Part shown: piece by piece, positions 12,073 to 64,000 of the stretch
How the letters are laid out: each line of letters begins with the position of its first letter
Position numbering within the stretch: position 1 is the stretch's first letter
Source of the DNA: Phycomyces blakesleeanus NRRL 1555(-)
Lineage: Eukaryota > Mucoromycota > Mucoromycetes > Mucorales > Phycomycetaceae
DNA: 64,000 nt
Assembly (NCBI RefSeq): GCF_001638985.1
Contig: NW_017265141.1
Coordinates: forward strand, 1,726,684-1,790,683
Reading direction: 5' to 3'
Position numbers and translations under genes: made by a program
The notes under the pieces: model-generated
What the model was told of the DNA's origin: nothing
Database searches by the model: none
The model's input: only the letters and a program-made list of their open reading frames with translations

Positions 12073-12115
<43 letters not shown>

Positions 12116-18581: not shown

Positions 18582-19229
18582 TTAATTCTTCTTTTCTGCC
18601 TCGGCAGCCTGAGCAGAAAGGGTGTCATTGAGAGAATGACCGTGAACAAGACCAATGGAAATGTAATCGTTGTTCAAGGGGATCTCTGACTCAGGGATAT
18701 CCATGTTCTTGTAACGGAGACGTTTGGCAAGATGTGCGAAGACATTGTTCTCAGTTCTGATGGTATCGCCACGACCCATGTTTCCTAGATCCCAGTTGTG
18801 CTGTGAAGACAAAAGATAAGCACATGTCCTTCCTTTTTTAGACCCTTTCTTTCTGTCTTATTTAACATGTATTACCTCAACTGTGTTCAAGGTAGAGAAA
18901 TGAGAGTAGTAGGTATCATCCTGAGTACCCTTCAAGTGCTTGGGAACATCGCCAAACAAAATACTCCATACTCTGTTTCTGGCGGAGTATGTGGCAGCCT
19001 GAAATACAAGTCAGAATCCTGTCGATTTATATATCCAAATATTAAAAAAAAAACATACCTCGTCAAATGTCAAAAGAATCAGGGTCTTGTCGAGGAGCTT
19101 TTTGTTTTTCAAAGTAGAATGGTAAAACTTATCCAACCAGTTACCAGCATAGGTTGCATTGGTGTCATGACCATCGTTAAGCATATCTGGAGTGTAGCTA
19201 TAATTTTTATTTCATTGTTAGAGCTTATT

Positions 19230-19266
<37 letters not shown>

Positions 19267-19943
19267 TTTGTTAAGAAAATACTTACAACATCCAGTTGGC
19301 AAGGTCGCCAGAAGCAATATCTTTAGCAAGCTCATCGCCTAGATAAAGGATTTTTTTTAGTAAATTGATAAAACAAAGAATTAATAATTCAAAGCTTACT
19401 GTGCACAATGTTACGGAGACGCTTCTTGTCCAAACCAATGGAATCGTAAGATACAGCAGGGTTGTGCTTACGGACATAGTGTCCAGAATTGTCACCAGTG
19501 AAACCAATCTTAGGAATACCCTCCTGGTACAATCTCCAGGTCAATTGCTTGTTCTCAAGGAGATCAAAGATGGAAGACTGCTCGGCAGGAATGTTGTAGT
19601 AGTCATCATCATCAATTCCAAAGTTGGATCCACCAGCAGCGGCAACGTAGTTGGGCTCAGAAGGATGGGTGATAGCTATACAATTAATTAGTATTCAATG
19701 TGTTTAGCTTAATTGCGCTTAACAAAATTTACCATTGAAGTTGGTCAACAGGATACCCTCAGACTTGAGCTGAGTGAATTGAGGGAGAGCCTCAATGGTG
19801 GAGAAATCTTGATTCTCAAACCAGATCTGGAGGATGTGATCAAAGGCCTTTCCCTTGGGAGCCTTCTTTTGGCTGGAACCAGCGGAGACAAAGGTGGTAG
19901 CAATTGAAGCGAGGGTGATGAAGGTAGCAATGGAGACACGCAT
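18582..19943 (-). CDS. Secreted acid phosphatase (phosphoesterase family)
   Basis: Six exons: 19943-19733, 19675-19400, 19338-19287, 19197-19059, 18998-18876 and 18800-18582, giving 339 residues. Residues 1-21 form a signal peptide (MRVSIATFITLASIATTFVSA). The mature protein begins with a basic stretch, then FDHILQIWFENQDFSTIEA, then ITHPSEPNYVAAAGGSNFG, LNDGHDTN, KTLILLTFDEA and HNWDLGNMGRGDT. These are the hallmark blocks of fungal phosphate-repressible acid phosphatases in the phosphoesterase superfamily that also holds bacterial AcpA and phospholipase C (metal-dependent phosphomonoester hydrolysis). The EN near the N-terminus and the TFDE region are expected to belong to the metal/active site. 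The length agrees with the short fungal forms. All introns are GT-AG, 57-89 nt; intron 3 carries an AG microsatellite. Likely role: phosphate scavenging outside the cell. Confidence 0.93.
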
Positions 19944-43512: not shown

Positions 43513-45124
43513 AGGGCATATATGTATATGTAGTTTCTCTATGCATTTCATTTTATTACTTCTATATTAGCTATCAATATTTCCACATTCATCAAAACCA
43601 CGAGAGTGTATTTTTTATTTTTTTTTATTTTCCATCATAATTTATTCCTTATTGTATTGCCAGAGAAAATATGGCTTATATCACTTCAATATATATATGT
43701 TGTATACATCATTTCTGTAATTAACACGGCTCTATCTTTTGGGGGTTTTATTGGTGATTTATGAGATTTGGTCTTTGTGAGGTATTTTGCGAGATGTACA
43801 GTCAATTGAACTAGAGGATTAAGATTGGATGAATAAAAGCAGTGTAAATCTGTAGAAATAAAAGATAGTGTTTCTTACGTGAGACTAAGACAACCCCAGT
43901 TTTTTTTGCACAAAAGGAAAATAATGTTCAGGCAGTGGGATTAAGTTTTGAGATAAAATCTTTGTTAACGTTCAGACGACTTGCCTTGTAATTATCTAAA
44001 TATTTCAAGATTAATAAGCCGTTTACAATACATCATTTTACAAAGTACAGCAAAAACTATTATTTATATATATATAAGATACTTTGGCGTCCTCATAATA
44101 TGAAATTAATGTTTTTTGAATGGTGTTGTTCATAATAAAGAGTCATCATTTGTGAAGAATAGGTGGTAATCGAAAAAGAGGTAAACATTTATTTTAGCTA
44201 ATAATATTCGTTTGCGAATAATTGGTACGGACAGACTAAAAGTTCAAAATTAATTCAAGTACATATTAGGTAAAATTGCGCTTATAATACCATGCCTTCC
44301 ATTAAGTGAAAATCTTTTATTGTAAGTTTTTCTAGGCCTTGCAGCCTACAGCACATCGTTTCCATAAAAAAATGCTCTTCTTCTCAATCCTAGTGACAAT
44401 GCAAGAAGACTAGCCAATAAGAGACGTTTACAATTTTTGCCCTTCTTTTGCCTTTTTTCTGGAGCTTTTGGTCTGTCCACACCAACTTACTGAAAGTTCC
44501 ATTATATATATATACCACACCAAATAAATCAAAGCCACAAGTCTCTCTAACTATCCACATACTAGATTAGCTATCTGCCCTTCCTTAGCAGCATCATAAC
44601 TGAAAAAGCATAATTTAAACAGATACCTATTATATATTTTGAAGATCGTTGAATTTACAACTGAGATATAAAAAAAAGCTTAATAAATAAAATCATTTTG
44701 ATTAAAATGCCAAATTAAATACAGAAAATCAACCATATATCTAAATCGGTTAAGCAAAGTCTTTTTAAATGTGTAAGTAATATGGTGCGACACATAAAGA
44801 TCCACAATTTAAAGATTATCTAACATTGATTGCTCAAATATTAACGAAAAAATCAATTATCTTTACCCTAAATTTCCACTCCCATTAATATTGATATTTC
44901 GACTATTTCTACAGAAAAATGTGTGTACCAAAATTTAATTTGACTGTGAGTAGCAGGTTCTATAATCCTTGGTATGAACCTGTGTTTTGTGTGATATTTT
45001 GTGGTTTAAATATCAAATAATGTAATTAAAGGCTAATATATGTTTTTCAATAGACTAGACTTGTGTAGTGATTAAAGCATCAACATAAAGCTCAAAGCAT
45101 ATAGAAAGTAAAGAAAAAGAAAAA
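43513..45124. other. Intergenic between the permease and the mobile island
   Basis: AT-rich, with a TA-rich permease 3' flank. Around 44380-44600 there is a promoter-like stretch (pyrimidine-rich, then TATATATATATACCACACC) with no coding frame behind it. Nothing else is recognised. Confidence 0.5.
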
Positions 45125-45705
45125 TGGTAGTGATATTGACAGACACTCTTAAAATGGATGGCTGTGCAATATATGTTATAATATTCTATATTAGGCTTTA
45201 AAAAAAAGAAAAATACATAGGATAATTTTTATGTGTTCTCTTAAATAGCATACTTGAAGTCTTTGTTTCAAATCTATTTATTAAAAGTATGAGAGTAAAT
45301 TGGTGTAAAGAAGTAAAAAAATGAAAAAATTGAAAAAAATGGGAAAATTTAAATTCATCAGGGCATTTTTTTCTTTTTTGGGTTAAATACCTGTCTCCAA
45401 GGTGTATAAGTGTAATGTATAAATCCCAGTCTTTCTTTATATAAAGACGCACACACCAGCTTGTCTGCCAATACCTTGGCTGTGCCATAATAAAATATAG
45501 AGTATAAGGTGGTTTGCTTTGTATGTCTTCTTGTAGACTGTGTAGATACTCACTGATAAATTAGAGTCTACGGCTTACAAAAGTCTTTGTAGACTGACAT
45601 TATCAATTTGTGGTGCAAACAGCCTATGTGTACCCATAAGAGAAAGAAACATAGCAGGCCAATCCACAGTGACACTACCACCCATACAAAGGTTGAAATA
45701 CTGTC
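45125..45705 (-). repeat. Left arm of a ~0.6-kb inverted repeat flanking the mobile island
   Basis: The reverse complement of this stretch aligns with 54158-54755 at what looks like roughly 75-85% identity, for example across ACCACAAATTGATA and the RLYIKKDWDLY-coding part. On the minus strand it carries a frame (45488-45198) of 96 residues starting MAQPRYWQTSWCVRLYIKKD; the right copy encodes MVQPRYRWTSWFVRLYVKKD. The frame is kept in both despite base changes, so it may be or have been a protein, but I know no family. It is followed directly by a copy of the 57-64-kb array's far end. Confidence 0.7.
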
Positions 45706-45859
45706 GGTTTTAATTTTTTACTGCCCTTAAAGTCAAGGCCAACGACCAATCATCTGGTATCCGCCGAGAATTACAGATATAAAAATGTTATTGGGCCGTT
45801 ACTTATAATTGTTTTTGTTTCTCTAGTGTCCTTGCAGTCAAGGGTAACGAGCAAGAACC
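45700..45859 (+). repeat. Displaced copy of two modules from the right-end array
   Basis: About 160 bases are nearly identical to 63738-63896, starting at ACTGTCGG and ending at AGCAAGAACC. They include the exon-like TCAAGGCCAACGACC block, an intron-like segment ending TTTCTCTAG and TGTCCTTGCAGTCAAGGG. The match stops exactly where the MULE terminal repeat begins at 45860, so the MULE either landed in an array copy or moved with one. Confidence 0.85.
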
Positions 45860-48375
45860 GTATCTCCTTATTTTATCCTACGGAGAGTTTGAATTAGTAT
45901 TTAATTTAGTCCTGTGGCTTTCTAACTTTAATGGCAGACAGTGGCTTTTGCATCCCACACATGGCATTTTTTTTTTAACAAATAATCACTTCCCTCTTTC
46001 TTAAAAACAAACTTCAATTATGTCTAACAACAATATAAACAACACTATTTATGATATTTCCACCATTCAACAAGTCTTGATCAACTCGCCTTTGGAAGGA
46101 ATCAAGATGCTTCCTTTGAATTCGACAATATTAGTAAAAGCTAGTGAATGGGAAAAGTGTCTGGAGCGAATCAATGTCTTATGCTCAACAAAATGGAATA
46201 AAAAGCATAAATATTCTGGAAAAGGTTTAGTTTTTGGAGAGACTAAAAAATGCCACCGTGCTGGCCAATATATAACAAACCGCCAATTACGTCTTGCCCA
46301 GAAAGATACGAAGGCATGCTCTTGTACAGCTGCCTTAAAAATCATACAGCATCTCGACAACCCCAATGTTGTTACATTTTGCCAAACAAGGGCACATGTA
46401 AACCATGTTCCTGGAGACTGGGACGAAGTCAGAACTCTTCCTTTGCCTTCTGAAGCCATAAAGATTATTGAAGATCAGTTGAAAAGTGGCAGCAGCTGTA
46501 GAAGTACAAGAATTTCAGTTCTTAGACAGATTGATAGTTGGGGAGTTGGCGTTAGAAAGCCTAATTATGAAGAAATTTACAACAGAATGAGAAAGGTTTG
46601 TCAATGAATATAACAGAGCTTTCGTATTAAATTAATATTTATATATCAAATAAATACTCGTATATAAAATAGATGACTACTTTGTTATATATGTTTGCTT
46701 CTGATGAAAATGCATCTATTTCCATCTGGTTAAATGTAAAGCTAGCAGAACAAAACTATTGCATTTTTGAAATCAATCTTTCTGTTTATAATGATGGTAA
46801 AAAACAATTTGCCTTTGGATTTCAATCACCAATGCAAGTTTCAATCATGAGAATCTCGCAATCTTTTTGTCTCGATGCCACCCATTCCATTTCGTCCAGA
46901 AGCGACGAAGTATTATATACTTTGGTCACTCGCCATCCTCAAACAGGAAAGGGATTCCCTGTTGCATACATGGTGACAAACAACCAGACAGCCATACCCA
47001 TCAAACTTTGGCTTGACCACCTTCGCATCAAGAGCAGCTTCGTACCAATGAATATTACCATTGACTGTAGCATTATGGAGGTTAATGCAATCAAAGAAGC
47101 ATTACCTCATGCTACAATTCACTACTGTGATTTTCATGTTCTTCGCGCTTGGCAGCACAACCTTGACAGCAAGATTAAACTTAATGCCTCTTATACATCA
47201 GAACAACTTGGGAATTATAAGACTGCACTGAAGAACTACCTGAGACACATTCTCATCGAGTCAAACGAAGACGTGTTCCTAAGAGCAATTGAAGATTTTA
47301 AACTGATGGTTCAGGATCAACCTCAGTTTTTGAAATATTTTGAGAAGAAATGGACCGAGAACGAAGAATTGTTGCGAAGATGGGGGCGCCCGTACATTAG
47401 CCAACAACATCAGAGATATGTGACAAACAACTATGTAGAATCATGGCACAATCAACTCAAGACAATCTACTTTGGTCGTGCACGCATCAGAAGATTGGAT
47501 CGACTAATTTTTATCTTGACAAATGATGTGGAGTTCTATTTTGAACAAGAGGTTGAGCGTATTCACTTCAACAATGGTAAGATGGGTCCCATTGATAATG
47601 AGTTAGCAAGAAATTCTTTTGTTGCTTCAAAAATCCAAAATGACATGCTCCCTTCCATGATTCTCAACCCTTTGGGTGAGACTGGTAACAGCATGGATGA
47701 TTATAATGGTGAGTGGCAAATAAGATCTTTCGTAACAGAAGATAAGTGGTATACCGTCAATATATCAAATGACTTGATACAAAGCTGCACCTGCCCGAAC
47801 TTTCTGACCCGCCAGATCCCATGCAAGCATTCACATTTGTTGAAGCGTTACTGTGGGGCAAAATTCAGCTTCATCGAGCAACGGGAGATAGCAGGAGTGG
47901 TATTGAACCGACAAGACGCTGTAAATGCAAACGAGAACGAAGTTGAGGAAGAAGTAGAGGAGGAATTAGAGAGTGGAGGTACTGCTGAAGATAGAGGTGT
48001 ATATGTCTTTGACGAAATTGCAGCTTATTCTGCAACGATGCATCACGGCTTTGAAGATCTTCAAACTTTGAAGACAATTCCTGGCTTAGATCAAACAAAG
48101 GCAGATCTTATAAAAAGAGCACTCGCAGATGCTGTGAGGTTGATGGATGAATATAGAAGTGAGAACCCTTCATATTTTAGAAACTTGAATACTCAGAGAT
48201 AATAATAAAAATAATAAATATATATCATTAAAAGATCTTAAAAGTACAAGAAAAAATATTTCTGATTGATATAAACAAATACAATTCTAATTGAATTTAC
48301 CAAAAGTAAAACCTGTCACTACCTCAACGGATTTTCAAAATTCAAACTCTCCGTAGGATAAAATAAGGAGATACC
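45860..48375 (+). mobile_element. Complete MULE (Mutator-like) DNA transposon
   Basis: The ends are 36-bp perfect inverted repeats: GTATCTCCTTATTTTATCC and on to 45895, mirrored at 48340-48375. The 2516-bp element holds one two-exon transposase gene in the plus direction and little else. No target duplication is visible: the left flank ends AGCAAGAACC and the right begins CAAAAAAAAG. The flanks have probably been rearranged, or the right flank has been replaced by the next element. Confidence 0.9.
46020..48202 (+). CDS. MULE transposase with SWIM zinc finger
   Basis: Exons 46020-46595 and 46673-48202 are joined by a 77-nt intron (GTTTGT to AATAG, phase 0), giving 701 residues. The N-terminal ~190 residues include a Cys/His-containing DNA-binding region of the kind at MULE N-termini (ACSCTAALKII, then CQTRAHVNH). 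The catalytic core appears intact: D260 in LDATHSISS, D323 in ITIDCSIMEV, the C-x2-H of YCDFHVLRAW (344-347) and E447 in NNYVESWHNQLK. The SWIM finger is CTCPNFLTRQIPCKH (C564, C566, C576, H578). A Glu-rich C-terminal tail follows. With perfect terminal repeats and no stops, the element may be recently active. If the intron were unspliced, translation would stop just after residue 192. Confidence 0.92.
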
Positions 48376-50690
48376 AAAAAAAAGGCTATCCAAATAAAAA
48401 AAAAGGCTATCCAGATTGCCAGCCAATAAAAAAAAGGCTATCCAAAGTACCAGCCAATAAAAAAAAGGCTATCCAAATAAAAAAAAAGGCTATCCAAATA
48501 AAAAAAAAGGCTATCCAGATTGCCAGCCAAAAAAAAAAAGGCTATCCAGATTGCCAGCCAATAAAAAAAAGGCTATCCAAAGTACCAGCCAAAAAAAAAA
48601 GGCTATCCAAATAAAAAAAAAGGCTATCCAGATTGCCAGCAAAAAAAAGTCTTTTTCTTTCGCTGAAATACAAAAAAAAAACCATGTCATCTAGTGATAC
48701 TAAAAATTCTAACGAGGGCGAAAAAACTGTTATTCTGTTGAAAAAAACATGTCCTTATTGCGACAAGTCGTATCAGTCGAATCAAAAAGCCGTGAACCAT
48801 ATCGCTACCACTCATAAGAAAAAAGTGGAACGTCTTTTCTCTGGTAACCGCAATTTTGGTGTGTACAATCAAACGAACGTTCAAAAGTATGAACGACTTG
48901 GCTACACCATCGTGGTTCAATTTGGCTGTGTCTCTTGTAAAGAGGCCTTCGTTATGAAAAAAGAACTTGAAAAGCATTGTGATTTGAAACATGTCGTGAC
49001 ATCTCAACCTGAAATTGGGTATTTGAAATATTTTGACTGACAATGATTTGGATTTCTAAATTTTACTTGTTTAAGAATTATCACTGCACCAGACGATATC
49101 ACCAAGCTAGGCTGGATTTTTTGTTGCCCAGACAATGATCTTGTCTTTCAGAACAACGATATTACCAAGGGGTTTTACGACTTCCGCAATTATGTGAAAA
49201 CGGTCATTGACGAACCGCGTCTCTTGACATATGAATCCCATGTCCAGCACGTCTTGGCATTGTCTTCAATCCTTTTGTTAAAGCCAGCCCGCACCAACAG
49301 TGACCTTCACAAGTTTATAGGACGTGAAATATGCGAAGACCTTATTGAATATTTGCTGGGAGAATATGGTATTCAGTCGTGCGAATTTGACCAATATACT
49401 CGGCTTGCTGCTGAACAAATCGTGAAGGTATATAATCAAGAGAGTAAAAAAATGGCTGAGCTTAATTATCCGTTATTATATAGACTTGCATCAAGAAGAA
49501 GACTACAGACTTTCAGGATTCTCAAAAATTGATGGCTCTTATGGTTGCCAGCGATGATGTCCATAACAGAGTACTATTTTGCTTTCGAAATCTGTAAGGG
49601 CGAATTGTGAAGAACGCAGGTCATAGTGTTTATTATATGACAATTAACATCTGTTCGTAGTCTTGAACAATTACCTTTGGAACCAATCAGTCAGAAAGTT
49701 GATGAATCGGAGTTGATTACTAGATATGTCACTGCAGCTATTAATCCGCTGTTGGAAAACCTCATGAAGCACGTCATGTTTCGTTGGTATGAAAAGAACA
49801 ATTTTAGTCAAATGCAAGCTAATTTTTTTTTTGCAATTTCGCGTACTTTAGGACTTCTGTTGATAATGACGAGTGCAAATCCAGTGAGATGTCATTGTTA
49901 CTGGCCAGACCTGATTCTATGGTCAGCATGATAATAGGCACGGAGATCGGGCAGACTGTAGGTTTTGGAGAAGTAAAACCAGCACTCCAGGCGCTGAATC
50001 ACAAGCTGGTTGGAAAAGACTTGGTACGATTAGCGCTTTTAGCAAAAAACGCAATTGATACGTATCGTAGCAAATTTGTTCTGTCGTTTCTTGTCGTTGG
50101 TAAATATCTCTGTTTTTATTTTGAATACAAAAAAGACATATTAACACTCTTTCTTTAATCACCCCTATGTTAAATAAGGACATCACGCGACGTTCTATTT
50201 GACTGATGGTACAAGAAATGGTCTATACCCAATGGTCGAAATTGCCCATATTCAATTGCCAATGTCTTTAAAAGAACTTCCACTTTTTATCGCACAAGCC
50301 GACCAATTGACATTAATTTCCTCAGCCTTCTGGAGCTTGTGCGTCGACCAGAAAACGAATCAGCAATCATCACTCATGCCAACACTTTCCGACAATGAAA
50401 TAGCATTAATTATGGATACCCACGCCAACCGCAAAAGAAAAGCAAGTAGCAGCCATTACACCCATTAATATTATTAAAAAATCTAGTAGAGTATACCTCA
50501 GATGAATCTTTTTTCATTTCACGATATCTGTTTTAAAAAAAACTGCGTTAGATGAGGCTGACAAATTGAGGAATCTTTTTTTTTGGCTAGTACTTTGGAT
50601 AGCCTTTTTTTTTATTTGGATAGCCTTTTTTTTTTTGGCTGGCAATCTGGATAGCCTTTTTTTTTTATTTGGATAGCCTTTTTTTATTTG
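48376..50690 (+). mobile_element. Putative mobile element bounded by inverted GGCTATCC arrays
   Basis: The left end (48376-48650) has ten copies of GGCTATCC spaced by poly-A and by variants of AGATTGCCAGCC or AAAGTACCAGCC. The right end (about 50571-50690) has four GGATAGCC copies, the reverse complement, with the matching GGCTGGCAATCT and GGCTAGTACTTT variants, so the ends are inverted repeats of each other. Between them is one intact six-exon gene. The left edge touches the MULE and the right edge a Tc1-type element with no spacer. I know of no named element with these ends. It could instead be a host gene flanked by repeats, but the symmetry argues for a unit. Confidence 0.65.
48684..50468 (+). 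CDS. C2H2 zinc-finger protein with PD-(D/E)XK-like core
   Basis: Six exons: 48684-49018, 49076-49427, 49484-49593, 49661-49786, 49852-50099 and 50179-50468, exactly 487 codons (486 residues). All introns are GT-AG, 56-79 nt. Two C2H2 fingers stand at the N-terminus: C23-x2-C26-x12-H39-x4-H44 (CPYCDKSYQSNQKAVNHI) and C82-x2-C85-x12-H98-x4-H103. A helical middle region follows (EDLIEYLLGEYGIQ). The C-terminal ~180 residues contain D329 (ARPDSMVSMIIG), E339 and GFGEVKP with E348-V-K350, then KDLVRLALLAKNAID and HHATFYLTDGTRNG. This D...E-x-K spacing, followed by helix and strand, resembles the PD-(D/E)XK nuclease fold. That fold call is inference. A Lys/Arg tail (NRKRKASS) may be a nuclear signal. 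The frame is undamaged and lies inside the GGCTATCC element. Confidence 0.75.
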
Positions 50691-52295
50691 GCAGTTTTCT
50701 GAGAAATTTAAATTGCGGGTCAAGCATTTCTTTTCTTTTTCTTATTTTCTTTCTCTTTCAATCTAGAACTACAATGAGTACATACTTTTTTTACGAAAAT
50801 GGACAAGGCAAGATCTACGATGAACAAGGCAATGATGCCATGGAATGGTCTGAAGAAGTTGATCCTTTTCATTTGTAAACCCTCACCACATTACGTGAAT
50901 ACCAACAGGCACAGCCATCCGAGCAAGAGCAAATGAGAGGCGAACTTGACGAGAATATGAACGAAGTATATTTAAGGGTGAATGAAGAAGATAATAACGT
51001 AACGAAGAAAAGTTATAAAGTATATTCTCCTGTCCAGAAGGTGCTTTTTCTGTACTATTTACAAGTGAAGTTGTTTAAAGCTGCGAAAGCTGCCAGATTT
51101 TCTGGTGTATCCGAACGTACTGGTCAACAGTGGGCTAAAAGAATAAGAGATGAACCTGAATGGAATATATTTGAAAAGCAAACAAATAAGGATAAGCGAA
51201 AGACAGGACAGCTGCAAGAAGAGCATAAGGAGTTTATTATCGATCTATTCGATAAAAACCCTCAAACACGTGTGAAGGATGTTGTTGTGAGTCTGGAGCG
51301 TTCGTTTGCGAATTTCAGCTTGAAAGAAACTAGTGTTCGTAACTTCATGACAAATGAATGCAATCTGTCATTCAAAAGAGCAACATTACAAACAAAAGAA
51401 AGAAACTCTGGAAAAACTCTTCAAAAACGATTCGAGTGGGTAGAGCAATGGACAACAACTGACATGGATTTCCTCTCCAACTGCGTTTTCGTAGATGAAA
51501 GTGGCTTTGATATAAACATGCGTCCACCTTCAGCCTGGTCTAAAGCTGGTACACCAGCAATTGTCGAAACAAAGTCGACTAAAGGGGATTCTCATTCGAT
51601 ATTAGGTGCCATAAGTTCAATTGGGGTTGTTGATATTGAGCTTCGAGTAACAGAAAAGCCTAAGCAACGTAAAGTTGATGGTGTAGGACGAAAAAGAAAG
51701 CAGACATCAAACCAGAAAAGACGAGAGGGAACTAAAACTGGTCATTACTTGAAATTCATTGGAAAAACTCTTGATGAAATGGATAAAAATCCTTGTATGA
51801 GTAATTTTTATATTGTCATAGACAATGCGCCCATTCATGCGAGTAAAACTATTGATGAATTAATCGCTTCAAGAGGATATAGATGCATACATCTTCCTCC
51901 TTATTCTGCCGAGTTAAATCCAATTGAACAATTTTGGTCTGTTGTAAAAAACAAAGTCAAGAGAGGCGTTTTTACTGATGAAGAAGATCTCAAAACAAGA
52001 ATTGCGGATGCATGCAATGATGTTCCTATTAAATATTTAAAAGCTTTCATACAGCACTCTTGTAATCAGTTTGACAAGTGCAAAAATAAAGAACCCCTCT
52101 AATTACAAGTCTCATACTTCGTCCAGCCATTACCGCAATTTAATTTCTCAGAAAACTGCAAATTAATTTCACGAAAAAACGCAATTTGATTTTCCAGAAA
52201 ACCGCAAATTGAGTTGTGAAAAGGCCGCACTTTGAATTTTTTTTTTCCGCAATTTAATTTTCACAAACCCGCAATTTAATGTTGCGGTCACTGTA
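50691..52295 (+). mobile_element. Tc1/mariner-type element, left end truncated
   Basis: The right end (52125-52295) carries about six subterminal repeats related to CCGCAATTTAAT and finishes GCGGTCACTGTA; read inward this gives TACAGTGACCGC, a typical start for such elements at a TA target. The left side has only the innermost of these repeats (CAGTTTTCTGAGAAATTT at 50692, matching AATTTCTCAGAAAACTGC at about 52132-52149). The outer ~150 bases are missing and replaced by the GGCTATCC array. The transposase between them has one in-frame stop. Confidence 0.85.
50774..52102 (+). pseudogene. DD34E Tc1/mariner-type transposase with one in-frame stop
   Basis: The frame from ATG 50774 (MSTYFFYENGQGKIYDEQG) meets TAA at 50876-50878 (codon 35) and then continues in the same frame through LREYQQAQPSEQEQ to an ATG at 50933 and on to 52102. 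From that ATG the protein has 389 residues: a helix-turn-helix region (SPVQKVLFLYYLQVKLFKAA), then D188 in CVFVDESGF, D297 in YIVIDNAPIH and E332 in AELNPIEQFW. The 34 residues between D297 and E332 give the DD34E spacing of Tc1-like enzymes. The core is otherwise undamaged; a CAA-to-TAA change would explain the stop. A protein starting at 50933 would keep most of the DNA-binding region, so residual function is possible. Confidence 0.85.
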
Positions 52296-54157
52296 CTTTT
52301 GTAATTCACTGTTTAAATATTTCTAAAAGAGAGTATATATGAGAAATCGGATGAGAAGTTAATGATACAAGCTATATATTTTCGTCAAGCTACTACTTCG
52401 ATAATTACCGAATATTGTAGTACCAGCCTTTTTCAGTAATAAAATAAAGCATTTTAGAATTTATTTTATATACTAATATATTAATATGAGATTTTGATAG
52501 GCCTCATTATCTGCACGCACAAAGATATAAGCCAAAGAGTATAAGTTATTAACTATAGAGTATAATGTCAAAGTCATTGGAGTTCCATTTTTGGTTAATT
52601 AATTTTGACTTTTATATGATTGTGTACTTGTTTTAGACGGGAAGCATACTTACTTAGGAAGATAGCTTCGCCTTTTTTTATAATAAAGCTGTTACTCAAC
52701 GCATGTCCATCGCAAAGGCATTGCTGTTTATTTATATAGAATTCATAACTTCACTACGGATATGAAAGTTGTGCGCTTAGATTGCTTCTATAGAGAGAGC
52801 TCATTAGCTTCAAATATTGTTTATAAAGAATGAGCAAACTTATAGTTTTGCGGTTTTCTCAAGAATACACTGACCTTCACTCTCGATCTTCCTAAGCCAC
52901 TCTTTATCGCACCCCCTACCCCACTCCCCCCTTCTCACATACCTCACCTACACACACACACACACACACATAAACCTCGACTACACATATTTTAACTACA
53001 TATACATCTCTTATAATACTTTTTAAACCTATATATATATAAATAATATGCTTGTAATTAAATCAAATACATATATAAATCATTATAGCTTCTATTTGTT
53101 GTGTCTATTTAAATATAGTAAAATAAATAGGGTAGGTGGAGACCGAGTCGAATTGATTAAAGTGAAAGGCTGAAGAAGAATGAGAGTGAATTGTAACAGC
53201 GATTTTATTTTAAAAATATTGAGAAGGTTTTGATAGTAGAGTATTTGTATTGTGTAAAGAGTGCGGAATAGTGAGATAGACGGAGGCAGTGTGTAAGAAT
53301 TTTTTTTTATATATAAGACAAGTTTGGGAATTAGGGTGTGTAGCAATTTTATTATTATTATAGACTTGAGGATTATTGTGTGCGCCTATAAAGAGAGATT
53401 ACTATGGTAGGACTTTGTGATGGGTGATTTCTGTTTGGTCTAGAACCAGTTATTTAAAGATATAGTAAAAGTCGGAAGCTTTGGAGAATATGTATGATAG
53501 GCTGGGGTCATTGTCACTGAAGACAGTCTTGGAAGCATAAGCATACAAGTGTTATGTGCGTGCAAGAGTTTGAAGGTAGTTCTGAGAACAGTGGTATATA
53601 GCACTTCAAATATAAAAGAATATAGTGTATAGCTTTTGAGTTTTGAAGTTTTATTATATGGCTATTATTTCAATTTTTATTTTTCAGTGATAGTAGAATA
53701 AAAGGATATTATGGTTGTTGATGTCAATTTTGATAGCGTTGTGAAGCTGGTGTTGCTAGGCGTAATAGATTTTTTTTTTATTTATTGGTGTCGGTTTTTA
53801 AAGCGTTGAGCAGTTTATAGGGACACGAAGGTATGACCGAGGGCTTATTTTTTGCTCGACTTGTATATACCATGGACAGCCGTCTAAAAAATAAAATAAA
53901 GAATATTTTGGTTTTTTTTTAAAAAGAGTGCGCTTCCTTTTTGTATTGCGTCGCTTTTGGTCCACTTTGAGTTGCAATACAATATGAATGTCGATCCCCA
54001 ACAGGAATGAAGATCCTCAGCTGGGATGGCGGAATGTTGGGAATGTCGAAAGAAGATTCAAGCCATCGTTAAAAAAATATATTTTTTTGTTTTGGTTGTG
54101 GTACAGCAAAGGTTATTTTAATACACACTTCTCTCTGAATAGTTTTGAGTGAATACT
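52296..54157. other. Intergenic, no gene seen
   Basis: AT-rich. Around 52880-52990 there is a C-rich promoter- or leader-like stretch with an AC run (about 52951-52972), but no coding frame follows on either strand. Frames in the remainder are short and simple-sequence. Confidence 0.55.
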
Positions 54158-54755
54158 AAATGGTATTTCAACCTCCATATGGATAACAGTGTCCCTGTCG
54201 ATGGGCTCTGCTATGGTTCTTTTACGATCGGGTACACAAAGGCTGTCTGCACCACAAATTGATAATATCAGTTTACAAAAAAAAGACTTTTGTTTGTAGG
54301 AAGTCGTAGGCTCTAATTTACCAATGAGCCTCTACACAGTCTACAAGAAGACATAAAAAGCAAACCACCTTATACTCTATATTTTATAATGGTACAGCCA
54401 AGATATCGGTGGACAAGCTGGTTTGTGCGTCTATATGTGAAGAAAGACTGGGATGTATACACTGCACATATACACCTTGGAGACAGGTATTTAACCCCCA
54501 AAAAAAAAAGAAAAAATGCCCTTATTAATTTAAATTTTCCCATTTTTTTTTTCTTTTTTACTTCTTTACACCAATTTACTATCATAATTTTAATTAATAA
54601 ATCTGAAACAAAGACTTCAAGTATGCTATTTAATGGAACACATAAAAAGTATCCTATGTATTTTTCTTTTCTCTTAAAGGGCAATATAAAATATCATGAC
54701 ATATATTACACAGCCGTCCATTTCAAGAGTGTCTGCCAAAGTCATTGCCTTTTTT
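54158..54755 (+). repeat. Right arm of the ~0.6-kb inverted repeat
   Basis: This is the inverted partner of 45125-45705. It encodes, on the plus strand from 54389, a frame beginning MVQPRYRWTSWFVRLYVKKD and continuing HLGDRYLTPKKK, FTSLHQFT and SETKTSSMLFNGTHKKYPMY, parallel to the left copy. The alignment runs from about AGTATTTCAACCT (54160) to AAGAGTGTCTG (about 54725-54740) and then fades. Confidence 0.7.
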
Positions 54756-57243
54756 TTTTGGAAAAAAGATTGTGGCTTTATTTGTACTCCACTCTTTGCT
54801 TCCAGCGTATGCTTGTAATGTCAGAATATAGGACGGCTTTCTTCATATAAACGTTTATACAAGCTGATATTCTGTTATGTAGAGCATATATAGATATATA
54901 GCTATTCTATAATGTCTCTTATGCTAAATAATATTCTCTTTTCTTTAAAAAAAATATCTCTAACTTTTGAACACTCCAAATTGATGCCTTTTGGAGTGTC
55001 TGGTTTATGTATTCAACTAAAAAAAAATTGTACTTTTAGAAACAACTCGTATTTTTGCTATTGGGCATTTAAAGAGCTTATTGAAGTGGTGCAAGTTTCC
55101 CGAATTTCAGGGTTCTATGCTTTTTGAGAGTGAAAAAATCGGATATTTTGATCAAAATTCGAGTAATTGTAATATAATAAACCTCGAAGAGGTGGATCAC
55201 AATGTGTCTCACCAGGTTACTTAAAGCCAAAAAAAAAACATTGCTTATTTGATTCGATTTTTAATTTTCTATAATTGAAAAGCTATGATTACCATTGGTG
55301 TGCATTTGCATATGCTTGTAGAAATCTTAAAAAATATCATTTCCAGTACACTCATATTTAATCGACCATAGAAAAGGTTCATTTATACAAAGGCTCCGTG
55401 CTTCAAACTAAAATAGTCTCAAGCGAACCAAAGCTAGACTATGAACCTCAAAGTAATAAGTGGAATCATACTATACAGTACTGTAGCGCATTATATTGTA
55501 TTACAAAACAAAAGTTATAAATCAAAGCCTTTAATCCAACAGAGTATTATTTCTAGGTTATTCGTGCATCCAGTTGAGTTTGGTATACAAGCGCAAAATA
55601 TCAAAAGCACTAGATCCTATAAATCGATAATTAGTAATCGATAGCGTCTTGCTCCCAACCAAACAAAACCTATACGTTCAGTAGCAGTAGATTGTCTCTT
55701 TGCTTTCATATTGTGCCGTCAGTCAGTCTGAGCAATAACAGAAAAAAATAGTAAATAAGCAGAGCCTTTAAAAGGTGATTTATATATATGTAATAGCCAT
55801 TTTACTAGCTTGATCTATCTGTGACCAGGCTAGCACAATTGCAAGCACCACTACTTTTTCATGGTGTATAATGTAACTTATATAAATAATTATAATTATC
55901 GATAGAATGGTGTATATTTGAACACATATAAATGTAAAGTGTTTCAGGCAGTTGGGTTATGCTGTATTAATTTCTCAGTTGGATTATGATTGGTTTATAA
56001 AGTAGTACAAACCAAGGTCGATTGACAAACACTAGGCTAGACCCTGTTCTTCTTTTTACTTTTATTTTACTCTAAGAACGATGCTTTAACTTGAGGTACC
56101 AACGACTTTCAATAGTCAGGCTGTCAATCCCTTCATACTGAAGCACTGAAAGTACTTTTATTTCAAGAAAGTATTCCTACACTTTGTGTTTATTAACTCA
56201 AGACACTGGTGAAAAAGCTAGAAGAAAAATGGAAGTCTTTCACACGAAAGAAAAGAAAAGATATAAGCAGCAATTTTTTTCGGGGGTGCTTCTTAAACTA
56301 ATAAAGTCACAGCATGTGAAACAAACAAACAAGAAAACAAACAAATAAATATACACAAGACTTTAATTAAAGCTTTATAATCAACACAACTTTACACTTC
56401 TTTATTGTAGTTTAACGTCTAGCCGATTAATACTTTGTATATCAGTAGTACAGCTAAAATGAACACAGAGGCATATATAGTGTCTCGACAAGTGGCTGTT
56501 CAAAAGCATAAGCCTTGTTAACAGAATCACAACAGAAAGTAGAATAAAAAAGGGGATGGGGGTCCATAGCAACTGAATAATTTGACATGCATATAGTCCA
56601 CCAATCGGAAGACATCATTTAAATGTTTTCATGCTAAAGTAAAGTCTGGACCACTATTGCTACTATGCTCCTCTAAGCCCCATGACACATGTGATGCTGC
56701 ACGGACAGCACGGACCTTATGTGACATAAAAAGAACTAAAACAAAAAAAGAGGCAAAAGAAAAAAACAAAAAGTAAAACAAGTGCCTGCACAGCACGTCC
56801 TTCAGAATATAAGTGATACTTCTTTAAAACCCAAAACCCATATTTTAAGCATAGATATTAAATAAAGAAGTAAAATAGTAATAATATATACATGCTGTCA
56901 AGGCTAAAAGATAAAAGAAAACCGAAAAAGGAATAAGAAAAAAACCGAATTTTATAATATATTATCAAACTATCATAATAAAAATAATAAAAAAGAACAG
57001 CAACTCATGATTGAGACGTCATGAGTTTTATAAAAAAAAAACACCTATCCAAACAGAACGCGTCAAAACAACTCTCTTCCACATACCATTAATACTTTAT
57101 ACACTTCTTTACTGCTCTCTCACAAACTGCTTTAATCAACATAGACGTTAAAGACGAATCATGACCAATACAAATCCATTTTGCTAGTCAAATCTCAGGC
57201 TTTTATCATATGTAAAACAGTCAGTAGCAAGATATAAGACAAC
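54756..57243. other. Intergenic before the modular array
   Basis: AT-rich DNA with several poly-A tracts. A frame near 54970-55127 (MPFGVSGLCIQLKK, then NNSYFCYWAFKELI) is slightly protein-like, but I cannot place it. A 21-base string at about 55686-55706 equals part of NCBP1 exon 16. No other feature is supported. Confidence 0.45.
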
Positions 57244-57339
57244 ATGTCAAAGCCAGTACACAGCAAAAATGAAATACTGAGGTCCAACACTGGTTTGACC
57301 ATCAATCCATCCAAAGCCTATTCACGCTCAGAAACAAGA

Positions 57340-60300
57340 TATAAACTGACAGGACTTACTATATTTCAAGGAGTATATGATATTTATCAAAGACACACAT
57401 TGTGAAGATTATATTTGTCTAGTCTTTTGACAAACAAGGTCAACGATAAAAAATAAGATCTCCATCCAGGCCTACAGGTATATAAAGGCTCGTTGATTAA
57501 TCATTCACTGTCTTTGATATTTCTTTAGGGACTTTTCAGGCAAAGTCAAGCAATCAAGAACAGGTTTCCATCCAGGGCCACAGGTACACCAAGACTCGAG
57601 GAGCATATGCTCATTGTCTTTTGTATGCTTCTAGTGCCTTCCGTCCAGGTCAAGCATCAGGGATCCGATCAGAGTCCACGGTTATCAGGTATATCAAAAC
57701 TCGATGGGCATTTACTCACTTGTTTTTGTATATTTGTAGTATCCATTCCATCCAGGTCAAGCTTCAAGGTTCACGTCAAGGTCCACGGTTTTCAGATCGA
57801 GGTCCACGGTTTCAGGTATATCAAAACTAGATGAGTAGTTACTCACTTGTTTTTGTATATTTGTAGTATCCATTCCGTCCAGGTCAAGCATCAGGGATCC
57901 GATCAGAGTCCACGGTTATCAGGTATATCAAAACTCGATGGGCATTTACTCACTTGTTTTTGTATATTTCTAGTATCCATTCCATCCAGGTCAAGCTTCA
58001 AGGTCCAGGTCAAGGTCCACGGTTTTCAGGTATATCAAAACTCGATGAGCAGTTACTCACTTGTTTTTTTATATTTCTAGTATCCATTCCATCCAGGTCA
58101 AGCTTCAAGGTTCAGGTCAAGGTCCACGGTTTTCAGGTATATCAAAACTCGATGAGCAGTTACTCACTTGTTTTTGTATATTTCTAGTATCCATTCCATC
58201 CAGGTCAAGCTTCAAGGTTCAGGTCAAGGTCAACGGTTTTCAGATCAAGGTCCACGGTTTCAGGTATATCAAAACTCGATGGGCATTTACTCACTTGTTT
58301 TTGTATATTTCTAGTATCCATTCCATCCAGGTCAAGCTTCAAGGTCCAGGTCAAGGTCCACGGTTTTCAGGTATATCAAAACTCGATGAGCAGTTACTCA
58401 CTTGTTTTTGTATATTTCTAGTATCCATTCCATCCAGGTCAAGCTTCAAGGTCCAGGTCAAGGTCCACGGTTTTCAGGTATATCAAAACTCGATGAGCAG
58501 TTACTCACTTGTTTTTGTATATTTCTAGTATCCATTCCATCCAGGTCAAGCTTCAAGGTTCAGGTCAAGGTCCACGGTTTTCAGATCAAGGTCCACGGTT
58601 TCAGGTATATCAAAACTCGATGAGCAGTTACTCACTTGTTTTTGTATATTTCTAGTATCCATTCCATCCAGGTCAAGCTTCAAGGTTCAGGTCAAGGTCA
58701 ACGGTTTTCAGATCAAGGTCCACGGTTTCAGGTATATCAAAACTCGATGAGCAATTACTCACTTGTTTTTGTATATTTTTAGTATCCATTCCGTCCAGGT
58801 CAAGCTTCAAGGTTCAGGTCAAGGTCCACGGTTTTCAGATCAAGGTCCACGGTTTCAGGTATATCAAAACTCGATGAGCAATTACTCACTTGTTTTTGTA
58901 TATTTGTAGTATCTATTCCATCCAGGGCAAGCTTCAAGGTTCAGGTCAAGGTCAGCGGGTTCAGGTCGAGGTCCACGGTTTCAGGTATATCAAAACTCGA
59001 TGAGCAGTTACTCACTTGTTTTTGTATATTTCTAGTATCCATTCCATCCAGGTCAAGCTTCAAGGTCCAGGTCAAGGTCCACGGTTTCAGGTATATCAAA
59101 ACTCGATGAGCAATTACTCACTTGTTTTTGTATATTTGTAGTATCTATTCCATCCAGGTCAAGCTTCAAGGTTCACGTCAAGGTCCACGGTTTTCAGATC
59201 GAGGTCCACGGTTTCAGGTATATCAAAACTAGATGAGTAGTTACTCACTTGTTTTTGTATATTTGTAGTATCCATTCCGTCCAGGTCAAGCATCAGGGAT
59301 CCGATCAGAGTCCACGGTTATCAGGTATATCAAAACTCGATGGGCAGTTACTCACTTGTTTTTGTATATTTCTAGTATCCATTCCATCCAGGTCAAGCTT
59401 CAAGGTTCAGGTCAAGGTCAACGGTTTTCAGATCAAGGTCCACGGTTTCAGGTATATCAAAACTCGATGGGCATTTACTCACTTGTTTTTGTATATTTTT
59501 AGTATCCATTCCATCCAGGTCAAGCTTCAAGGTTCAAGTCAAGGTCCACCGTTTCAGGTATATCAAAACTCGATGGGCATTTACTCACTTGTTTTTATAT
59601 ATTTGTAGTATCTATTCCATCCAGGGCAAGCTTCAAGGTTCAGGTCAAGGTCCACGGTTTTCAGATCGAGGTCCACGGTTTCAGGTATATCAAAACTCGA
59701 TGAGCAGTTACTCACTTGTTTTTGTATATTTGTAGTATCCAATCCATCCAGGAAAAGCATCAATGTTCCGATCTACCAGCTATGGTTATAGGTATAACAG
59801 AACGTTATGCGCATTTACTCACTAGCTTTTATCTATTACTAGTGTTCAGCCATCCAGGTCAAGTGTCAAGGACCCGATTTCCCGGCAATGGGTATAGGTA
59901 TAACAAATCGTTGTGGGAATATACTCACTAGTTATAATATATTTATAGTGTTCAGCCATCGATGTCAGGCGTCAAGGTTGCGATCTTCCAGCCAAGGTTA
60001 TAGGTATAACAAAACATTATGGAAATATACTCACTGGTCTTAATATGTTTTTAGTGTTCACTCATCCAGGTCAATCAACAGGATTCTGATCTCCCGTCCA
60101 TGGTTATAGGTATAACAAATCGTTGTGGGAATATACTCACTAGTTTTAATATATTTATAATGTTTAGCCATCGATGTTAGGCGTCAAGGTTCCGATCTTC
60201 CAGCTATGGTTCTAGGTATATCAAAACAATATGGAAATATACTTACTGGTTTTAATATGTTTTTAGTGTTCCGTCATCCAGGTCAATCAACAGGATTCTG

Positions 60301-63300
60301 ATCTCCCGTCCATAGTTATAGGTATAAAAAAACGTTATGGGAATATACTCACTAGTTTTAATATATTTCTAGTGTTTAGCTATCCATGTCAAGCGTCCAG
60401 GTTCCGATCTCCCAACCATGTTTACAGGTATAACAAAACGTTATGCGCATTTACTCGCATGCTTTTATCTATTACTAGTGTTCAGCCATCTAGGTCAAGT
60501 GTCAAGGTTCCGATTGCCCGCCCATGGTTATAGGTATAAAAAACATTATAGGCATATATTGACTAGTTTTTATATTTATTTGTGAACTCCAGCCATCCGT
60601 GTCAAGCGTCAAGGACCCGATCGCCCGTCCATGGTTATAGGTATAAAAACATTATGAGCGTACACTCATTAGTTTTTATATTTATTTAAGTCTCCAGCCA
60701 TCCGTGTCAAGCATCAAGAACCCGATCCCCCGTCCATGGTTATAGGTATAAAAACATTATGGGTAAATACTTACTAGCTTTTATCTATTTCTAGTCTCCA
60801 GTCATCAATGTGAAGCGGCAAGGACCCGATCGACCGTCAATGGTTATAGGTAAAAAAAAACCATTAGGGACATATACACACTAGCTTTTATCTATCTCTA
60901 GTCTCCAGTTATCCAGGACAAGCATCACGGTTTCGATCTCCCAGCTATGGTTATAGGTATAACAATACATTATGCGCATTTACTCACTAGCTTTATTATA
61001 GTTCAAGTCTCCAGCCATCCAGGACAAGCATCAAGGTTCCGATCTACCAGCTATGGTTATAGGTATAACAGAACGTTATGCGCATTTACTCACTAGCTTT
61101 TATCTATTACTAGTGTTCAGCCATCCAGGTCAAGTGTCAAGGACCCGATCGCCCGGCCATGGGTATAGGTATAACAAAACGTTGTGGGAATATACTCACT
61201 AGTTATAATATATTTATAGTGTTCAGCCATCGATATCAGGCGTCAAGGTTGCGATCTTCCAGCCAAGGTTATAGGTATAACAAAACATTATGGAAATATA
61301 CTCACTGGTCTTAATATGTTTTTAGTGTTCAGTCATCCAGGTCAATCAACAGGATTCTGATCTCCCGTCCATGGTTATAGGTATAACAAAACGTTATGGC
61401 AATATACTCATTATTTTAAATATATTTCTAGTGTTCCGCCAATCATGTCAAGCGTCCAGGTTCCCATCTCCCTGCCATGGTTATAGATGTAAAAAACATT
61501 AGGGACATATACTCACTATCGTTAATATATGTCTAGTGTTCAGTCATCCAGGTCAAGCATCTAGGTTCTGATCGCCAATCCATGGTTAAAGGTATAAAAC
61601 AACATTATGGGCGTATACTCACTAGTTTTAATCTAGTTCTAGTCTCCAGCCATCCAGGTCAAGCATCAAGGTTCTACTCGCCCGTCAATGGTGACAGGTA
61701 TAACAAAATGTTATGGGCATATATTCACTAGTTTTAATATATCTCTAGTGTTGGGCCATCCAGGTCGAGCATCAAGGTTCCGATCGCCCGTCCATGGTTA
61801 TAGGTATAAAAAGCATTATCGGCCTATACTCACTAGCTTTAATATTTTTCTAGTGTTCAGTTATCCAGGTCAAGCATCAAGGACCCTATCGCCCGCCCAT
61901 GGTTATAAGTACAAAAAGCATTATGTGCATATACTCATTTTTTTAATCTAGTTCTAGTCTCCAGCCATCCAGGTCAAGCATCAAGATTCTGATCGCCCGT
62001 GCATGGTGATAGGTATAACAAAATGGTATGGGCATATATTCACTAGATTTAATATATTTCTAGTTTTCAGCTATCCAGGTCAAGCATCATGGTTCCGATC
62101 GCCCGTCAATGGTTATAGGTATAAAAAAACATTATGGGCCTATACTCACTAGTTTTTATATTTATTTCTGGTCTTCAGCCATCCGTGGCAAGCATCAAGG
62201 ACCCGATCACCCGTCCATGGTTATAGGTATAACAAATCGTTATTGTCATTTACTCACTAGTTTTGATATTTATTTCTAGCCTCCAGCCATTCAGATCAAG
62301 CGTCAAGGACCTGATCACCCCTCTATGTTTATCGGTATAAAACAACATTATGGGCATATACTCACTAGCTTTAATATATTTCTAGTATGCAGTCATCCAG
62401 GTCAAGCATCAAGGCTTCGATCGCCAGCCGATGGTTATAAGTGTAAAAAAAACGTTATTCCCATATACTCACCAGATTTAATATATTTCTAGTATTCAGC
62501 CATCCATGTCAAGCCTCAAGGTTCAGATCGCCCGTCCATGGTCATAAGTATAAAACAACATTATGGGCATATACTCACTAGCTGTAATATACTTCTTGTG
62601 TTCAGTCTTCCAGATCAAGCATCAAGGTTCTGATCTCCCCGCCATAGTTATAGGTATAAAAAAACATTATGGGCATATACTCACTAGATTTAATATATCT
62701 CCAGTCTCCAGCTATCCAAATCAAGCATCAAGATTCCGATCTCCCCGCCATGGTTATAGGTATAAAAAAACATTATGGGCATATACTCACTAGATTTAAT
62801 ATATCTCCAGTCTCCAGCTATCCAGGTCAAGCATCAAGATTCCGATCTCCCCGCCATGGGTATAGGTATAAAAAGCATTATGGGCATATACTCATTATTT
62901 TAATCTAGTTCTAGTCTCCGGCCATCCAGGTCGAGCTTCAAGGTGCTGATCTCCCGTTATATGGTTATAGATATAACAAAAATCGATGAGCAATCACACT
63001 CGGCTTTATTTATTTCTAGTGTTGAATCCACCAAGATCATGCTTCACGGATCCGGATTCAGTCCGTGGCTATAGGTATACAAAAACTCGATGAGCAATTA
63101 CTCATTGGATTTTATATATTTCTAGTGTCTACTCATCCACGGCAATTATCGGGATCCGATTTTCATGAATTGTTATAGCTAACCAAGTTTCCTTTAAACC
63201 TTTACTTAAAACAAACTGTACTCTTTATTTATACTTTCTTTTGATGGCAAAGAACGATGATCAAATATACATCCATTATGGAGGGTATACAAGTCGTTCT

Positions 63301-64000
63301 TGGCCATTACTAGCCTAGAAGTATATATGACTATTGTTTTTACTCTCCAGGCCAAACAGCAAGGATCAAAACTCAAATTTGGGCTACAGGTAAACAAGGC
63401 TTCTTGAGCTTTTACTTACTGTCATTTATATATTTCTAGTGTTTTTTTTTTCCTTAAAGTTCAAATATCAAAGATCTGATTTCAAATCAAGGTTACGGGT
63501 ACACACTTTTCTCTCTGTCTTTACATGCTTTCTTTCGTATTGGCCTAGTGTGTTTACGATCCGGCTACACAATGAAAAATTTGTTTTCCTTCCAGTGCGA
63601 CAGGTATATACATCTAGTTCGGCCTTTAGTTACTGTTGGCTTTATTTCTATACTGGCTTCACAGTCCAAGCCAGCCATCATGGATCCTATATCCGTCCAG
63701 CGTTACAGGTATACACTTCTCTTTGGGATTTTACTTACTGTCGGTTTTAATTTTCTACTGCCCTTAAAGTCAAGGCCAACGACCAATCATCTGGTATCCG
63801 CCGAGAATTCCAGATATAAAAATGTTATTGGGCCGTTACTTATAATTGTTTTTGTTTCTCTAGTGTCCTTGCAGTCAAGGGTAACGAGCAAGAACCCGGT
63901 CTCCATATTGGGATATAGTGTTACACATATCTTTGATTTTTGACTTGCTGCAAACTGTATTTTTTCTCGTGACTTTACAGTCAAATTCAACACTCAAGGA
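57340..64000 (+). repeat. Tandem array of exon-intron-like modules
   Basis: More than 50 head-to-tail units of about 106-107 bp; a minority are ~127 bp because 20-21 bases are duplicated inside. Each unit splits into an exon-like block (54-56 or 76 nt; core CATCCAGGTCAAGCATCAAG, ending CAG or TATAG) and a 51-nt block beginning GTATAT, GTATAA or GTATAC, with TTACTCACT 20-25 bases before a final TAG. Examples of the 51-nt blocks: 57478-57528, 57584-57634, 57689-57739, 57816-57866, 57923-57973 and 58030-58080. Units up to ~59.7 kb form one subfamily (exon start TATCCATTCC); those from 59.7 to 63.0 kb another (TGTTCAGCCATCC). Edge units (57.3-57.6 and 63.0-64.0 kb) are diverged. In the left subfamily the sampled exon-like blocks are stop-free in all three frames; in the right one TTATAG makes a stop in one frame. 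Whether it is a transcribed, spliced gene or a satellite cannot be decided here. Confidence 0.85.

What the first reader, a model, noticed from the sequence alone, without database searches (positions are those of the whole stretch)
57478..64000. Tandem array whose unit is an exon plus a 51-nt intron
Over 50 consecutive units keep a GTATA start, a TTACTCACT-like branch region and a TAG end exactly 51 bases apart in every case I measured, while the other block varies (54, 55, 56 or 76 nt). Real introns in this window also use GTATAT (kinase intron 1, permease intron 4) and GTATAA (NCBP1), so these are usable donors here. This could be a gene of more than 50 mini-exons, a spliced non-coding RNA, or a satellite born from a small exon-intron pair. 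I know of no described fungal locus of this shape.
Basis: partly seen in the sequence, partly recalled or inferred. Interest (0 to 1): 0.88.

Follow-up and report, generated by a model that had tools for sequence, protein, structure and literature searches.

The report
Dispersed satellite array mimicking tiny introns
A DNA unit of about 105 to 107 bases, repeated about 115 times in a row in the longest copy read in full, sits together with its flanking DNA at about 36 places in the genome of a fungus that is likely Phycomyces blakesleeanus; its look of tiny introns is likely a by-product of the repetition, so this is probably non-coding satellite DNA rather than a gene of mini-exons.

Summary
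The array is real and larger than described. The window ends at a contig end; in another copy (C36) the array runs 12.5 kb with 114-117 units (95 of 113 spacings are 104-108 bases). Its 5' flank recurs at 36 places, the window included, 29 of them at 95% identity or more: a dispersed repeat family, likely of Phycomyces blakesleeanus. The exact 51-nt rule fails: of 59 anchored units in the window, 55 have GT, 49 GTATA, 34 GTATA with TAG at base 51. Old units show no constraint on the proposed donor (GT changed 18 times, 15.7 expected; in the ancient copy C4d AT outnumbers GT 10 to 7). In young and middle units GT and the overlapping TA are the most conserved neighbouring pairs of 102, but the branch A is no better kept than an average A. 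No coding constraint was found (9 of 71 variants make a stop, 9.4 expected). Best reading: a satellite-bearing complex repeat, likely spread and homogenised by unequal crossing-over and gene conversion and likely methylated, similar in layout to the Candida albicans Major Repeat Sequence. Splicing of the young block is not excluded; only RNA data can settle it.

The parts
54751..57420 (+). 5' flank of the repeat block, shared with other copies; no long conserved reading frame found
   Evidence: Window 56500-57700 matches 36 places, itself included, 29 at 95-100% identity; copies start to match at different points (54751, 54776, 54953, 55249); between divergent copies only short frames match, none dominant
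57421..57580 (+). first recognised array units, of the old type (edge of array)
   Evidence: unit profile hit at C36 6924-7030, about window 57421-57527 by the alignment
57581..59775 (+). young, homogeneous block of units (105-107 and 126-127 bp)
   Evidence: TRF rows 57581-58584 and 58006-59871; unit spacing; the block limits are approximate
59775..63128 (+). middle block of moderately diverged units, mostly 104-108 bp
   Evidence: TRF row 59671-63128, period 106, 32.6 copies
63129..64000 (+). start of the old, strongly diverged tail; cut by the contig end
   Evidence: 63200-64000 matches 29 places, itself included, at 95% or more over at least 790 bases; the tail continues in C36
45116..45872 (.). 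rearranged fragment of the same family: 45116-45701 is the reverse of 54163-54759 (84%), 45699-45872 matches 63736-63909 (96.6%)
   Evidence: also (C8:1771799-1772384 and 1772382-1772555)

Best explanation
This is the proximal part of a tandem array of units mostly 104-108 bases long (114-117 units over 12.5 kb in copy C36) inside a repeat block found at 36 places of the genome, and it is most likely non-coding satellite DNA that probably grows by unequal crossing-over, is probably kept alike by gene conversion, and is probably silent methylated chromatin rather than a spliced gene. Shown: the dispersed copies, the shared flanks on both sides, the variable unit number (2-3 to 117), old units at both edges with young ones between, stretches of 97-100% identity inside old copies that are otherwise much less alike, and an excess of CpG transitions. 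Inferred: the exchange mechanisms, methylation, and lack of a spliced product. A role as recombination or heterochromatin block, as discussed for the Candida albicans Major Repeat Sequence, is the likeliest effect on the cell and is untested.
For: Dispersed copies: 36 places share the 5' flank, this one included (40 of 42 candidates scored); 29 places, this one included, share 63200-64000 over at least 790 of 801 bases at 95% or more, plus partial ones. Unit number varies: C36 114-117, C20m 85-89, C4d 15-18 (cut at the fetch end), C8b 11-12, C28 10, C19 2-3; other copies are cut by fetch ends, gaps, insertions or contig ends. Age gradient. Conversion-like identity peaks: C28 97-100% in the 100-base bins from 55200 to 55600 but 62-85% in those from 56000 to 57400; C19 94-100% from 56800 to 57200 but 67-80% outside. 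Old units: GT 18 changes, 15.7 expected by trinucleotide context. Coding: 9 of 71 distinct variants of young-type exons make a stop, 9.4 expected. CpG sites transition-polymorphic 52 of 204, A/T sites 206 of 3627, other C/G sites 202 of 1717; P. blakesleeanus transposable elements and repeats carry 5mC in CG and CHH contexts (PMC11258239, section 8 read). No Rfam family at E<=1; no Pfam family at its cut-off for one array frame and for the annotated proteins P0002 and P0003.
Against: In young and middle units GT and the overlapping TA at the donor are the two most conserved neighbouring pairs of 102 (0.33 and 0.25 of expectation); GT is present in 101 of 101 distinct young-type and 270 of 284 middle-type units (units were anchored and classed with sequences that contain GTATA, which favours GT somewhat). 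The old-unit acceptor region changed half as often as expected (20 against 38.6, z -3.3, one of nine classes tested). The young block, spliced at about 51 nt, is open in all three frames for 430-467 codons, against at most 192 in shuffled exons, and a first count found stops in 8 of 54 exons where 21.2 were expected (see Tried and rejected). Public annotation holds hypothetical proteins on such arrays. No RNA, chromatin or methylation data for these loci were seen.
Confidence: 0.75

Rival explanations
1. The young and middle units are real exon-intron pairs of a long spliced non-coding RNA; the tail is a decayed remnant.
For: GT and TA are the most conserved pairs in young and middle units; donor GT in 371 of 385 distinct young- and middle-type units; three introns that I could read in the window's kinase gene use GTAAAA, GTAAGT and GTAAAT, and two of them have TTTACTCG or TTACTTAT near the 3' end, so the array's TTACTCAC is a plausible branch site (my reading).
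Against: Branch A not better kept than average in young and middle units (11 steps, mean of A columns 9.4); no constraint on GT in old units and many non-GT donors in ancient copies; CpG decay suggests methylated, silent DNA.
Confidence: 0.13
2. A protein-coding gene of many mini-exons, as public annotation suggests (hypothetical proteins PHYBLDRAFT_65718, PHYBLDRAFT_74154, F4703DRAFT_1378138).
For: The annotated hypothetical proteins; the young block spliced at about 51 nt is open in three frames for 430-467 codons.
Against: Exon lengths of 54, 55, 56, 75 and 76 change the frame; stop-making variants not depleted when each variant is counted once (9 of 71); a shuffled exon is open in three frames in 3.2% of trials and repetition does the rest; outside the young block stops fall in all frames (29-33 per frame in 1350 codons with 47 of 58 introns removed); P0002 joins units at inconsistent places by my reading; no Pfam match at cut-off.
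Confidence: 0.03
3. The array is a passenger inside a large non-autonomous transposon, and transposition spread it.
For: 36 dispersed places with a shared 5' flank, and a shared 3' side at most of them.
Against: Left ends differ between copies; window 54600-55400 and C36 19201-20500 share no repeat beyond 12-base matches; in C36 no open frame of 150 aa or more lies in the block outside the array itself; the homology of C36 and C20 continues past the array into other tandem repeats, as in segmental duplication.
Confidence: 0.09

Closest known systems
Major Repeat Sequence (MRS) of Candida albicans
   Same: Dispersed on most chromosomes; variable-length tandem array (RPS) often between non-repeated flanks (RB2, HOK); RPS itself built of segments of about 80-170 bp (passages of PMC6896093).
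   Different: Unit here is about 105-107 bp, not 2 kb; 36 places instead of nine complete loci; no sequence comparison with the MRS was made; different phylum.
Satellite DNA (general)
   Same: Tandem units without sign of coding, young centre and old edges, homogenised blocks, variable length.
   Different: Dispersed in short arrays (up to 12.5 kb in the copies read) with long shared flanks instead of one very long block; chromosomal position unknown.
Mini-exon / micro-exon genes (e.g. schistosome MEGs, Rhizophagus SP7-like effectors; recalled, no call)
   Same: Many short exon-like stretches between short intron-like ones.
   Different: No frame constraint found; proposed donors not constrained in old units.

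Membership tests
Satellite DNA | head-to-tail units forming long arrays | tested here: met
Satellite DNA | non-coding | tested here: met
   no depletion of stop-making variants in young-type exons, 9 of 71 against 9.4 expected; stops in all frames outside the young block; one search pointed the other way before tail units and repeated variants were taken out
Satellite DNA | copy-number change and within-array homogenisation | tested here: met
   2-3 to 117 units between copies; second young-plus-middle block in C36
Satellite DNA | heterochromatic, methylated | tested here: inconclusive
   CpG transition excess only; species-wide 5mC in repeats from PMC11258239, these loci not seen
Major Repeat Sequence of Candida albicans | array between shared non-repeated flanks at dispersed loci | tested here: met
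Major Repeat Sequence of Candida albicans | RPS/RB2/HOK sequence homology | not tested
   claimed only as an analogue in layout; unit length (about 105-107 bp against 2 kb) differs
Major Repeat Sequence of Candida albicans | involvement in translocations and size polymorphism in isolates | not testable with these tools
   no second assembly at DNA level
Gene with many spliceosomal mini-exons | constrained splice donor in old units and ancient copies | tested here: not met
   GT 18 changes against 15.7 expected; GT in 35 of 52 tail units of C36, 7 of 18 units of C4d, 6 of 11 of C8b, 5 of 10 of C28
Gene with many spliceosomal mini-exons | constrained GT, branch A and AG in young and middle units | tested here: inconclusive
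   GT second of 102 pairs (0.33); AG 18 steps against about 26; branch A 11 steps, mean 9.4
Gene with many spliceosomal mini-exons | spliced transcripts | not testable with these tools
   no RNA data
Gene with many spliceosomal mini-exons | one reading frame kept through the exons | tested here: not met
   exon lengths 54-56 and 75-76 mixed; stops in all frames outside the young block

The most novel reading that the evidence does not exclude
The young units form a dense bait for the spliceosome: a long transcript with dozens of near-identical, poorly branched introns stalls splicing and feeds RNAi and cytosine methylation, so that a satellite uses intron-like signals to silence itself and its dispersed relatives, comparable to the stalled-spliceosome signal described for Cryptococcus.
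Probability: 0.05. Interest if true: 0.85.

Novelty: new member of a known kind. Interest (0 to 1): 0.33.

Why it matters
It is a genome-wide repeat family (36 places, a block of about 15 kb in C36) at which this assembly ends or has gaps in several copies (contig ends of C8, C51, C19; gaps in C51 and C12) and on which public annotation holds hypothetical proteins. It offers copies of very different age for studying array growth, gene conversion and CpG decay in an early-diverging fungus, and it warns that constant GT-to-AG spacing inside a tandem repeat is not evidence of introns. The top listings of my paper searches on Mucoromycota, Mucorales and Phycomyces showed no description of it; the listings are capped and most subscription papers are not held.

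Tried and rejected
Telomere link: (TTAGGG)4 occurs once, inside C28, and the C7 start and the C36 and C51 ends that I read are not telomeric, so a subtelomeric position is neither shown nor excluded. Reverse-strand introns: weaker in the middle and young consensus; in the tail consensus nearly equal (11.7 against 12.1). Rfam: nothing. Spliced-ORF search with free choice of introns: best 3777 nt over 29 introns in C36, not spanning the array. Splicing with the later acceptor (exon of about 48 nt): 31 of 58 introns removed, longest frame 159 codons, inside the shuffled range (maximum 169). Comparison of splice sites between near-identical copies: too few changes (GT 0 against 2.0 expected in six copies, 1 against 1.1 in eight). 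In one search stops were found in 8 of 54 exons against 21.2 expected, which would speak for coding; three of the eight were tail units, and shared variants were counted many times. With tail units taken out and each variant counted once 9 of 71 make a stop, 9.4 expected; among variants seen in two or more exons 3 of 42 (P 0.17). That count rests on an alignment with indels. The tail branch A is somewhat below the A mean on the unit tree (19 against 26.4) and near expectation in the pairwise test (5 against 6.0). The labels young, middle and tail are by similarity to consensus sequences, not by dating. Passages of PMC3000332 were seen and not used.

Full report
What is there. The window is contig C8:1726684-1790683 of a 53.5-Mb genome and ends exactly at that contig's end. 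From about 57421 to 64000 it is a head-to-tail array. A profile of the unit places 59 anchored units at 57478-63920; of the 58 spacings 48 are 104-109 bases, 9 are 126-127 (a 20-base insert) and one is 213, where a unit was missed. Of the 59, 55 have GT at the proposed donor, 49 GTATA, 34 GTATA with a TAG ending at base 51, 36 TACTCACT. So the pattern is real, but not 'in every case'.

The organism. A protein search with one frame of the array found three proteins with E<=0.01 among 60 candidates, all named Phycomyces blakesleeanus. Two of them lie on contigs of 452434 and 1324230 bases, the lengths of C36 and C13 here. I take the genome to be P. blakesleeanus NRRL 1555(-); this is an inference from those matches.

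It is a dispersed family. The 1.2 kb around the array start matches 36 places, this one included, 29 of them at 95-100% (40 of 42 candidates were scored, so this is a lower bound). The last 801 bases of the window match 29 places, this one included, at 95% or more over at least 790 bases, and further partial ones. A 3' end beyond the window recurs as well. In C36 the array runs from 6924 to 19455 of the joined stretch, 12.5 kb, with 114-117 units; 95 of 113 spacings are 104-108 bases, and most of the rest come from a 20-base insert, missed units or the last, poorly matched stretch (the causes are my reading). Window 64000 corresponds to 14739 there. C20m has 85-89 units; old relatives have fewer: C4d 15-18 (cut at the fetch end), C8b 11-12, C28 10, C19 2-3. 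Other copies I fetched only in part or not at all, or they are cut by gaps, insertions or contig ends. C51 read in reverse differs from the window end at two positions in the last 3.4 kb, so it may be the same locus assembled twice.

How it evolves. Units at the 5' edge and in the long 3' tail are old; those between are young or middle-aged. C36 carries a second young-plus-middle block. This is the picture expected of unequal crossing-over inside a satellite. Old relatives show short stretches of near identity with the young copies: in 100-base bins C28 has 97-100% from 55200 to 55600 but 62-85% from 56000 to 57400, and C19 has 94-100% from 56800 to 57200 but 67-80% outside; I read these as gene conversion. 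Left ends differ between copies, a comparison of window 54600-55400 with C36 19201-20500 showed no terminal repeat beyond 12-base matches, and beyond the array C36 and C20 share further tandem repeats, which fits segmental duplication better than transposition. Sites in CpG are transition-polymorphic in 52 of 204 cases, other C/G sites in 202 of 1717, A/T sites in 206 of 3627 (11 and 8 copies aligned). In this species 5mC is enriched in repeats in CG and CHH contexts and low in highly expressed genes (PMC11258239, section 8 read whole; passages). I infer methylated, mostly silent DNA; methylation of these loci was not seen.

Is it spliced? Constant GT-to-AG spacing follows from tandem repetition alone. 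I therefore asked whether splice sites change less than other sites. Between the C36 tail and its relatives C4a and C4c (5878 unit sites), GT changed 18 times against 15.7 expected from trinucleotide context, the G alone 14 of 56; the branch region 45 against 50.1; the acceptor region 20 against 38.6. GT is present in 60 of 62 young and middle units of C36 but in 35 of 52 tail units, in 7 of 18 units of C4d (AT in 10), 6 of 11 of C8b, 5 of 10 of C28 and 2 of 3 of C19. On a tree of 376 young and middle units GT and the overlapping TA are the two most conserved neighbouring pairs of 102, but the branch A changed 11 times (mean of A columns 9.4) and the acceptor AG 18 times (about 26 from the column means); on the tree of 329 tail units GT ranks 31st of 102, the branch A has 19 steps (mean 26.4) and AG 57 (about 69 from the means). 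So there is no constraint on the donor in old units, an unexplained one in younger units, and some sign of one at the acceptor.

Does it code? Spliced at about 51 nt (47 of 58 introns removed), the young block is open in all three frames for 430-467 codons, more than in any of 200 shuffles (maximum 192). But exon lengths of 54, 55, 56, 75 and 76 change the frame freely, a shuffled exon is open in three frames in 3.2% of trials, and repetition then makes it long. A first count of stops in exons pointed to depletion (8 of 54, 21.2 expected); with tail units removed and each variant counted once, 9 of 71 variants make a stop against 9.4 expected. Outside the young block stops fall in every frame. 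The annotated proteins P0002 and P0003 match no Pfam family, and the array frame only below cut-off; P0002 joins units at inconsistent places by my reading. They look like products of automatic gene finding.

Comparison with known things. The layout (shared flank, variable array, shared flank, many places) resembles the Candida albicans Major Repeat Sequence as described in PMC6896093 (passages). I claim likeness of layout only. The idea that stalled splicing feeds RNAi is from the Cryptococcus literature (search listing; papers not read) and is used only for the novel case.

Verdict. An object of a known kind, a dispersed satellite-bearing complex repeat, of which the listings of my paper searches showed no description. 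The residual puzzle is the conservation of GTA in the young and middle units.

Noticed in passing
window 45116-45872: A fragment made of the reversed 5' flank (54163-54759) joined to a piece of the old tail (63736-63909): a rearranged remnant of the same family inside the window.
   Followed up: partly
window 50879-52099 (+), with 48376-48648 and 50576-50692: 407-aa open frame with Pfam DDE_3 (E 7.6e-24); short A-rich repeats and, nearer the frame, their reverse complements lie upstream, perhaps ends of a DNA transposon.
   Followed up: partly
window 53000-54283: A different repeat family: 97-99% identical to places on C13, C18, C40, C37 and C7, most of them not beside an array flank.
   Followed up: no
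C36:449050-452434 (L028), C20:758001-768000 (L029), C51:47011-49734 (L011): Tandem repeats of about 2.8 kb with 74-bp sub-repeats lie near several array copies, on either side.
   Followed up: partly
C20:151-192k (+) and C20:778-752k (-): Two clusters of array plus 2.8-kb repeats face each other on one contig about 560 kb apart.
   Followed up: no
L012, L013 (C51) against the window end: Two mismatches in the last 3.4 kb: C51 may be the unjoined continuation of C8, or a very recent copy.
   Followed up: partly
array units, offsets -37 to -35 and -2 to +4 from the proposed donor: CAA and AGGTATA stay among the best-kept stretches in young, middle and (except the G of GT) old units; could be a protein-binding site rather than a splice signal.
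   Followed up: no
C7 near 1816655 (L026/L030): Array tail interrupted by inserted DNA with a long run of G, also present in C12.
   Followed up: no
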